Source: Tolypeutes matacus (lineage: Eukaryota; Chordata; Mammalia; Cingulata; Chlamyphoridae). From it: DNA of 64,000 nucleotides. The stretch covers positions 28,779,559 through 28,843,558 of the forward strand of contig JAKSZT010053883.1 in NCBI GenBank assembly GCA_026826555.1. Direction: 5' to 3'. This document shows, in pieces, positions 24,582 to 25,818 of the stretch. The notes beneath the pieces were generated by a model that was not told the origin of the DNA, did not search any database, and saw nothing but the letters and a program-made list of their open reading frames with translations. Position numbers and translations under genes: made by a program. How positions within the stretch are numbered: the first letter of the stretch is position 1; the number at the start of each line of letters is the position of its first letter.

Positions 24582-25249
24582 CCCATGCAAATATTCTTGC
24601 TGTCCTGGTTTTGTGATAATCAGGGTAGGCTAAACATTCACTATATTAGAAACCATGCATGTGTCTCCAGACCTAGTTTTTCTCCCTAGGTCTGGTTTTC
24701 AGATTGCTGGTGATAAACTAAGCCTGATTTATTATATGACCATCCTGTATGGGAAAAGACTGTAACTTTGGGTATCTTTGGTCAACCTTAAGAGATATAG
24801 CAGGGGGACAGATATAGCAGGCGTACGTCTCCCATATGGAAGGACCTGGGTTCAATCCTCAGGACCTCCCAGTAAAAATAAAAAAGAAAAATATAGACGG
24901 CGCACGGGCCACCAGGCCCCGTGTGCGGGTGCATCACCAGGCCCTGTGAGCGGCAAGACCCCCAGGCCCTGCACACGGGTGTGCCATCATGCTCCGCCAA
25001 GCCATGCAGCAAGATGATGATGTAACAGGAGAGTGACACAAGGGAGAGCTAAGATGAGACGCACCAAAAAACCAGGAACTAAGGTGGTGCAGGCTGTAGG
25101 ACGCCTCTCTTCCACATTGGAGGTTCTGAGGATCAAATCCCAATAAAGATAGGAGAAGGATGAGAAGAGAGGGCAGGAAGCAGACACAGAGAGTTGCCCA
25201 GTGAATGGACACAGAAACAGCAAAAACAGGGGTGGGGTGGGGTAAAAAT
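24582..25249 (+). mobile_element. Composite retroposon unit A (about 195-bp leader plus dimeric SINE)
   Basis: A non-SINE leader (about 24582-24800; ATTCTTGCTGTCCTG to TATCTTTGGTCAACC) is followed by a tRNA-like monomer (24802-24873), a GC-rich linker of degenerate repeats (CCAGGCCC-TG-GGG), a GCAAGATGATG motif, a second tRNA-like monomer (about 25065-25145) and a tail near 25249. The leader and SINE recur in the same order on the opposite strand at 50.2-51.0 kb. The unit runs straight into PAFAH1B1 sequence. One near-duplication (AAAGAACTAT at 24572 and AAACAACTAT at 25819) brackets unit plus PAFAH1B1. Confidence 0.8.
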
Positions 25250-25818
25250 GACCAGACAGTGCATGTGTGGGTGGTAGCAACAAAGGAATGCAAGGCTGGG
25301 CTTCGAGAACACAAGCATGTGGTAGAATGAATTTCCCGGGCTCCAGAAAGCTCATTTGCTTCCATCTCTGAAGCAACAGGATCTGAGTCTTAAAAAAGTG
25401 GCAAACCTAGGCCATTCTGGCTCTCTGGATCCAGAAACAAGACTATTAAGATGTGGGATGTCAGTACTACCATGTGTCTTATGACCCTTGTGAGTCAAGA
25501 TAACTGGGTATGTGGAGTTCTGTTCCATTCTGGGGGGCAAGTTTATTATGAGTTGTGCTGATGACAAGACCCTACATGTATACGATTGCATGAAGATCCT
25601 CAGTGTGCACAAACACTTTGTTACGTCCTTGGATTTCCATAAGACGGTGCCATATGTGGTTACTGGCAGTATAGATCAAACAGTAAAGGTGTGGGAGTGC
25701 CGTTGATGGAGTCTCACTTGGCCCCTCCTCCCTTTTTTCCTCTGGTTGCATTCTGATGATACCATGGTTACCCCCATTGAGCTCTGTTTAAATATTGTTC
25801 TTTCATGTAAATTTAAAA
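25250..25818 (+). pseudogene. PAFAH1B1: PAFAH1B1 (LIS1) 3'-terminal retrocopy
   Basis: LIS1 is a WD40-repeat protein that regulates cytoplasmic dynein and is a non-catalytic subunit of PAF acetylhydrolase. The plus strand carries the last WD repeats without introns: DQTVHVWVVATKECKA, a degraded middle, GVLFHSGGKFIMSCADDKTL, HFVTSLDFHKTVPYVVTGS and the normal end QTVKVWECR-stop (25704-25706). A 3' UTR-like stretch and an A-rich end (about 25813-25821) follow. The N-terminal two thirds are absent. An internal stop lies after the KHVVE segment, and there are substitutions and a deletion between DDKTL and the next repeat. It begins directly at the composite SINE, not at a clean 5' end. Confidence 0.92.

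What the first reader, a model, noticed from the sequence alone, without database searches (positions are those of the whole stretch)
24582..25818. A composite SINE unit fused to LIS1 in one insertion
Removing 24582-25818 rejoins a split old L1, and near-matching 10-mers (AAAGAACTAT, AAACAACTAT) sit at the edges. The insert reads: about 200-bp leader, dimeric SINE with GC-rich linker, then the 3' third of PAFAH1B1 with its 3' UTR and A-rich end. The LIS1 part starts mid-codon run at a short AAAATGACCAG junction instead of its own 5' end. This is what reverse transcription starting on LIS1 mRNA and jumping to a composite SINE RNA would leave, comparable to U6-L1 chimeras in primates.
Basis: partly seen in the sequence, partly recalled or inferred. 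Interest (0 to 1): 0.75.

Follow-up and report, generated by a model that had tools for sequence, protein, structure and literature searches.

The report
snoRNA-headed SINE fused to LIS1
One old insertion in this mammalian window joins a snoRNA-plus-SINE repeat unit to a broken copy of the LIS1 messenger RNA, and a second copy of the same unit nearby is joined to a LINE-1-like piece instead, which points to a jumping reverse transcriptase and to a repeat unit that begins with a snoRNA.

Summary
One block (24582-25818) splits an old L1: leader, dimeric SINE with GC-rich linker, intronless LIS1 residues 254-410, 3'UTR, short A-run. Flanking 10-mers match 9/10 (chance about 2.4%). New: the 'leader' is complete SNORA72, an H/ACA snoRNA (133 bits), plus about 85 nt. 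A second copy of the unit lies at 51029-50224, minus strand. It too starts at the snoRNA's 5' end, but its 3' partner is an L1-3'UTR-like piece, and a perfect 13-bp duplication encloses the whole. Best reading: LINE-1 reverse transcription began on LIS1 (A) or L1-like (B) RNA and jumped to RNA of a repeated SNORA72-SINE unit. RNA ligation or read-through is not excluded, and the LIS1 part looks nominally older than the unit (p 0.09). The chimera type is known; nine relevant searches of open papers listed none on a SNORA72-headed SINE. Genome search did not complete (11 tries), so copy number, source and empty sites in relatives are untested.

The parts
24380..24571 (+). Host L1, left part
   Evidence: 61.9-64.7% identical to L1 copies at 9533-9726 and 30937-31135; LINE-1 ORF2 lies upstream of the 9.5k copy
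24572..24581 (+). Left copy of putative target duplication AAAGAACTAT
   Evidence: 9/10 match to 25819-25828; chance 76/3000, 71/3000 and 35/1475
24582..24584 (+). Three extra bases CCC at the 5' junction
   Evidence: Read directly
24585..24718 (+). Copy A: full-length SNORA72 H/ACA snoRNA, model positions 1-132
   Evidence: Rfam RF00139, 133.1 bits, E 2.4e-24; 0 of 200 shuffles fold as well
24719..24802 (+). Copy A: sequence 3' of the snoRNA, about 85 nt, shared with copy B
   Evidence: 24719-24806 is 95.5% identical to 50895-50808
24803..24892 (+). Copy A: first tRNA-like SINE head with A-rich tail (10-nt gap against B in the A-box region)
   Evidence: Aligned with SINE monomers at 1.9k, 4.8k, 41k and 59k; gap
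24893..25002 (+). Copy A: GC-rich linker, 4 cores spaced 25, 17 and 33 bp
   Evidence: cores allowed up to 4 mismatches in 11
25003..25246 (+). Copy A: second SINE half (tRNA-like head 2 plus body), cut in its 3' tail
   Evidence: 89.5% identical to copy B over 238 positions; same layout in ordinary dimer at about 19896-20299
25247..25706 (+). LIS1 (PAFAH1B1) coding remnant, Asn254 to stop, intronless and broken
25707..25818 (+). Sequence after the LIS1 stop codon, taken as LIS1 3'UTR, and short A-run
   Evidence: Read directly; not compared with a LIS1 mRNA; no AATAAA/ATTAAA found
25819..25828 (+). Right copy of putative target duplication AAACAACTAT
25829..26190 (+). Host L1, 3' part
   Evidence: 62-68% identical in parts to 3354-3548, 21723-21809 and 48828-48659
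51030..51042 (-). Copy B: left target duplication AAAGACTTAAATA
   Evidence: score reached by 8/3000, 14/3000 and 0/1475 controls
50896..51029 (-). Copy B: full-length SNORA72
   Evidence: Rfam RF00139, 100.3 bits; 68 of 200 shuffles fold as well
50224..50895 (-). Copy B: same downstream sequence, SINE head 1, linker with 7 cores at 25-bp spacing, SINE half 2 and natural (TAAA)n tail
49988..50223 (-). Copy B: L1-3'UTR-like 3' partner with AATAAA and A-run
   Evidence: 78.9% over 123 bp to the end of the L1 at 47957-47841
49975..49987 (-). Copy B: right target duplication AAAGACTTAAATA

Best explanation
Copy A is one LINE-1-mediated insertion. Inferred steps: L1 nicked the old L1 copy and began target-primed reverse transcription on LIS1 mRNA. 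It copied the 3'UTR and residues 410-254, then moved at an A-rich spot with 3-5 nt of shared sequence to the tail of a second RNA. It copied that RNA to its 5' end, which is the 5' end of SNORA72 within a base. The second RNA is not unique to this site: it comes from a repeated unit (SNORA72, about 85 nt downstream, SINE head, GC-rich repeats, SINE half) that was also joined to an L1-3'UTR-like RNA in copy B. Shown: anatomy, two copies, shared 5' end, different 3' partners, and the enclosing duplications (B strong, A moderate). Inferred: template switching. More speculative (about 0.4): the source RNA is a SNORA72-bearing host intron transcript with downstream SINEs, trimmed at the snoRNA boundary.
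For: SNORA72 is full length at the 5' edge of both copies. The same unit has two different 3' partners. B has a perfect 13-bp duplication, and the L1 copy at 8960-9627 (LINE-1 ORF2 upstream) aligns through the empty site; my join kept about 24 extra bases, which the alignment gaps out. A has a 9/10 pair. No duplication between unit and LIS1 (score 0) and none convincing between unit and L1 piece (735/3000). All parts lie in sense. LIS1 starts at Asn254, inside exon 8 (c.672-900; passages of PMC9472359), so that junction is not an exon junction, and introns at c.900, c.1002 and c.1159 are absent. 800-bp flanks of A and B share nothing next to the inserts. The two snoRNAs share 11 differences from the Rfam consensus, including 2 insertions, which points to one founder or to the species' own SNORA72.
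Against: The A-edge duplication is only 9/10, and its host L1 lacks about 27 nt there. The LIS1 part looks older than the snoRNA of A: 26 changes in 358 sites (7.3%) against 4 private changes in 134 (3.0%), Fisher p 0.09; 2 further snoRNA positions that differ three ways were left out of the 4. Not significant, but it leans against one event. The first SINE head seems to have its own target duplication inside the unit (B 9/10, 37/3000; A 8/10, 444/3000), so the unit grew partly by DNA insertion, not by template jumps alone. Only two copies, no genome-wide view.
Confidence: 0.77

Rival explanations
1. Read-through (3' transduction): a unit inserted earlier inside or just upstream of a LIS1 pseudogene elsewhere, and inside an L1 3'UTR for copy B. 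Its transcript ran on into the neighbour and the joint RNA was then copied once.
For: Gives the same order, orientation and single enclosing duplication. B keeps a complete SINE tail before the L1 piece, as an inserted SINE would, and its partner ends with AATAAA.
Against: In A the SINE is cut at the start of its tail (GGGGTAAAAAT) with 3-5 nt shared with LIS1, not followed by a full tail; later tail shortening could mimic this. It needs two separate source loci.
Confidence: 0.1
2. RNA ligation before reverse transcription joined the two RNAs end to end.
For: Proposed for U6/L1 and Alu/L1 chimeras in PMC13174262 (passages and sections 11, 12, 17 seen). Would also give sense orientation and one duplication.
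Against: The A junction lies inside the SINE tail and inside the LIS1 coding region with shared bases, so both RNAs would have to be fragments.
Confidence: 0.08
3. Sequential insertions: LIS1 retrocopy first, unit later exactly at its 5' end.
For: LIS1 part nominally more diverged than the unit's snoRNA (p 0.09).
Against: No target duplication around the unit alone (score 0). It would have to land on the LIS1 truncation point, and copy B repeats the same arrangement with another partner.
Confidence: 0.05

Closest known systems
LINE-mediated chimeric retrogenes (U6/L1, U3/L1, Alu/L1, snRNA/mRNA; tripartite WEIRD/Mg-SINE/MGL and mouse B2/U6/L1): PMC2104539, PMC4476161, PMC13174262
   Same: Full-length small RNA at 5', 5'-truncated L1 or mRNA at 3', same orientation, short direct repeats
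   Different: The 5' part is a composite repeat unit headed by SNORA72. The parts of PMC13174262 that I saw list U1-U6, U3, 5S, tRNA, 28S, 7SL, Y, 7SK, Alu and mRNA pieces as partners, no H/ACA snoRNA
snoRNA retroposons (platypus family of about 40,000 copies, rhesus SNORA24b, SNORA70): PMC2832892, passages and section 9 seen
   Same: Starts at the snoRNA 5' end and carries downstream sequence; the rhesus SNORA24b copy also carries host-intron sequence
   Different: Here a dimeric SINE and GC-rich repeats follow, and the 3' ends are foreign RNAs
SVA-type composite elements of hominoids (described in passages of PMC13174262; details recalled)
   Same: Composite, SINE parts plus GC-rich tandem repeats, presumably moved by L1
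   Different: Different parts and lineage; snoRNA head; linker count known for two copies only (4 and 7)
Armadillo DAS-SINEs (Churakov et al. 2005; title seen in a reference list, content recalled)
   Same: Two tRNA-like heads, GC-rich linker, body and (TAAA)n tail, as in the ordinary dimer near 20k
   Different: SNORA72 and about 85 nt added in front

Membership tests
LINE-mediated chimeric retrogene | 5' part is a full-length copy of a cellular RNA | tested here: met
   SNORA72 model positions 1-132 at the 5' edge of 2 of 2 copies; the rest of the unit is cut in its tail in A
LINE-mediated chimeric retrogene | 3' part is a 5'-truncated RNA copy | tested here: met
   LIS1 from Asn254; L1-3'UTR-like piece
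LINE-mediated chimeric retrogene | Parts joined directly in one orientation | tested here: met
LINE-mediated chimeric retrogene | Short direct repeats flank the whole | tested here: met
   B 13/13; A only 9/10 at about 2.4% chance
LINE-mediated chimeric retrogene | Truncation sites vary between copies | tested here: inconclusive
   Only two junctions
snoRNA retroposon | Begins at snoRNA 5' end, with duplication and A-rich end | tested here: met
   the A-rich end belongs to the 3' partner
SVA element | Hexamer, Alu-like, VNTR, SINE-R | tested here: inconclusive
   No SVA consensus was held. Only the GC-rich repeat is comparable; the Rfam scan gave no SRP-like hit
DAS-SINE | tRNA-Ala-derived head | tested here: inconclusive
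   tRNA-like heads align with many window SINEs; Rfam tRNA hit only at 11661-11732; no consensus held
Multi-copy active family | Many dispersed copies genome-wide | not tested
   The genome search unanswered; 2 copies in 64 kb

The most novel reading that the evidence does not exclude
A xenarthran composite retroposon family, SVA-like in build, whose RNA starts at a trimmed SNORA72 snoRNA end (made from a host intron, not from an internal pol III start) and which serves repeatedly as the preferred 5' acceptor in LINE-1 template jumps from mRNAs and L1.
Probability: 0.4. Interest if true: 0.72.

Novelty: new variant of a known kind. Interest (0 to 1): 0.55.

Why it matters
It would show how a snoRNA-bearing transcript can become a mobile composite element, and would give a natural set of junctions (one 5' unit, many 3' partners) to measure where LINE-1 reverse transcriptase leaves one RNA for another. 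PMC4476161 (Table 2) puts 136 of 174 analysed armadillo U6 copies in the repeat-associated class, so that genome may favour such jumps (inference).

Tried and rejected
Tried without result: whole-genome search of the window's own assembly (11 calls, none answered); exact pattern scans for SNORA72 and for the downstream sequence in viral and bacterial/archaeal contigs (0 matches each). Rejected: leader as unknown SINE leader (it is SNORA72); A and B as one segmental duplication (800-bp flanks share only a dispersed 112-bp repeat at different distances); exon-joined chimera at the LIS1 junction (mid exon 8). Weak Rfam hits SMAD5-AS1_2 and psRNA6 are below gathering scores. The snoRNA of B does not fold better than shuffles (68 of 200 as good), while A does (0 of 200); the downstream sequence does not (171 of 200). 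Pfam found a reverse transcriptase domain in 1 of 5 L1 pieces given; LINE-1 ORF2 chains matched both of the two pieces searched.

Full report
The observation. The block 24582-25818 sits inside an old L1 and reads as described. The edge 10-mers are at 24572-24581 and 25819-25828 and match 9 of 10. Controls equal this in 76 of 3000 and 71 of 3000 random positions and 35 of 1475 positions of its own flank. The rejoined L1 lacks about 27 nt relative to L1 copies near 9.7k, 21.7k and 31.1k, so the duplication in A is probable, not certain. No repeat library was held; that these copies are LINE-1 rests on ORF2 matches upstream of the 9.5k copy and in the host of copy B.

The leader. A covariance search finds SNORA72 (RF00139) at 24585-24718, complete from model position 1 to 132, 133.1 bits. 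It begins 3 bases after the left 10-mer. About 85 nt follow before the first SINE head. A whole-window search at gathering thresholds finds one other SNORA72, at 51029-50896 on the minus strand, 100.3 bits.

The second copy. 51029-50224 carries the same unit in the same order: snoRNA (88.0% identical over 133), downstream sequence (95.5% over 88), head 1 (81.4% over 86), second SINE half (89.5% over 238). The GC-rich linker has 7 cores at exact 25-bp spacing in B, and 4 in A spaced 25, 17 and 33 bp. B then keeps the natural (TAAA)n tail and continues into an L1-3'UTR-like piece (78.9% over 123 bp to the L1 end at 47957-47841) with AATAAA and an A-run. A perfect 13-bp duplication, AAAGACTTAAATA, encloses the whole. 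An L1 copy at 8960-9627 runs through the empty site, gapping out the short insert end that my join had kept. Controls reach B's score in 8/3000, 14/3000 and 0/1475.

The LIS1 part. Three open pieces match solved LIS1 chains best. The copy starts at Asn254 and runs to the stop at 25704-25706, with 2 stops, a 1-nt insertion and a 15-nt loss. Published variants place exon ends at c.671, c.900, c.1002 and c.1159 (passages of PMC9472359), so the junction is inside exon 8 and three introns are absent. No AATAAA or ATTAAA was found after the stop, so priming at an internal A-rich site is possible; no LIS1 mRNA was at hand to check the 3'UTR.

One event or several. There is no duplication between unit and LIS1 (score 0) and none convincing between unit and L1 piece in B (735/3000). 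The LIS1 part is nominally more diverged than the snoRNA of A (26/358 against 4/134 private changes, two three-way positions left out; p 0.09), a result that leans the other way but is not significant. The first SINE head has its own duplication-like pair inside the unit (B 9/10, 37/3000; A 8/10, 444/3000), which suggests that the unit was partly built at a DNA locus before it moved.

How it works. Both copies start at the snoRNA's first base, within a base. In B an A-box-like motif lies at unit position 230 and B-box-like motifs at 274 and 645; in A only B-box-like motifs are seen, at 264 and 546 (motifs recalled, up to 3 mismatches). That is too far in to set the 5' end if pol III starts just upstream of the A box (established knowledge). 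A transcript trimmed at the snoRNA boundary fits better. SNORA72 is hosted by RPL30 in humans (passages of PMC7072173, PMC9454646); whether the 85 nt are that intron is untested. A rhesus snoRNA retrocopy made from partly processed host RNA is a precedent (PMC2832892, section 9). The jump from LIS1 or L1 RNA to this RNA follows the chimera model of PMC2104539 (abstract and sections 3, 8 read).

What is known. PMC13174262 (abstract, sections 11, 12, 17 and passages) lists many L1 partners but no H/ACA snoRNA or DAS-SINE chimera in what I saw. PMC4476161 (12 of 20 passages and section 9) reports U6/pseudogene chimeras and 136 of 174 armadillo U6 copies in the repeat class. PMC13197249 (abstract, first part of the results, term search) does not mention SNORA72, armadillo, sloth or Xenarthra in its main text; its supplements were not open to me. 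Nine searches that bear on the point (one search listed 20 of 28 papers) listed none whose title or abstract start describes a SNORA72-headed SINE. Repeat libraries and most subscription papers were not searched.

Limits. The one extra copy in the window would mean 403-88,791 copies per Gb (95% range), but local clustering cannot be excluded and the genome search did not complete.

I added (ORF lists, Pfam, two ORF2 comparisons) to test the L1 naming, and mended the linker spacing, the box positions, the SVA row and the search count.

Noticed in passing
49988-51029 (minus strand): Second copy of the SNORA72-SINE unit, fused to an L1-3'UTR-like piece within a perfect 13-bp duplication.
   Followed up: yes
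50808-50695 and 24803-24892: First SINE head inside the unit has its own duplication-like pair ATATAGCAGG / ATATAGAAGG (B) or ATATAGACGG (A).
   Followed up: partly
19896-20299: Ordinary dimeric SINE with head, GC-rich linker, second head, body and (TAAA)n tail, flanked by a direct repeat (AGAAGTGGCTGAGG).
   Followed up: partly
26518-26628 and about 49433-49542: Dispersed repeat, 90% identical over 112 bp, unrelated to the insert.
   Followed up: no
25795-25818: LIS1 piece ends without a canonical poly(A) signal, so priming may have been at an internal A-rich site of the 3'UTR.
   Followed up: no
50002-50060 (minus strand): The L1-like partner of B has about 60 nt beyond the end of the similar L1 at 47.8k, with its own AATAAA: another L1 subfamily or read-through.
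   Followed up: no
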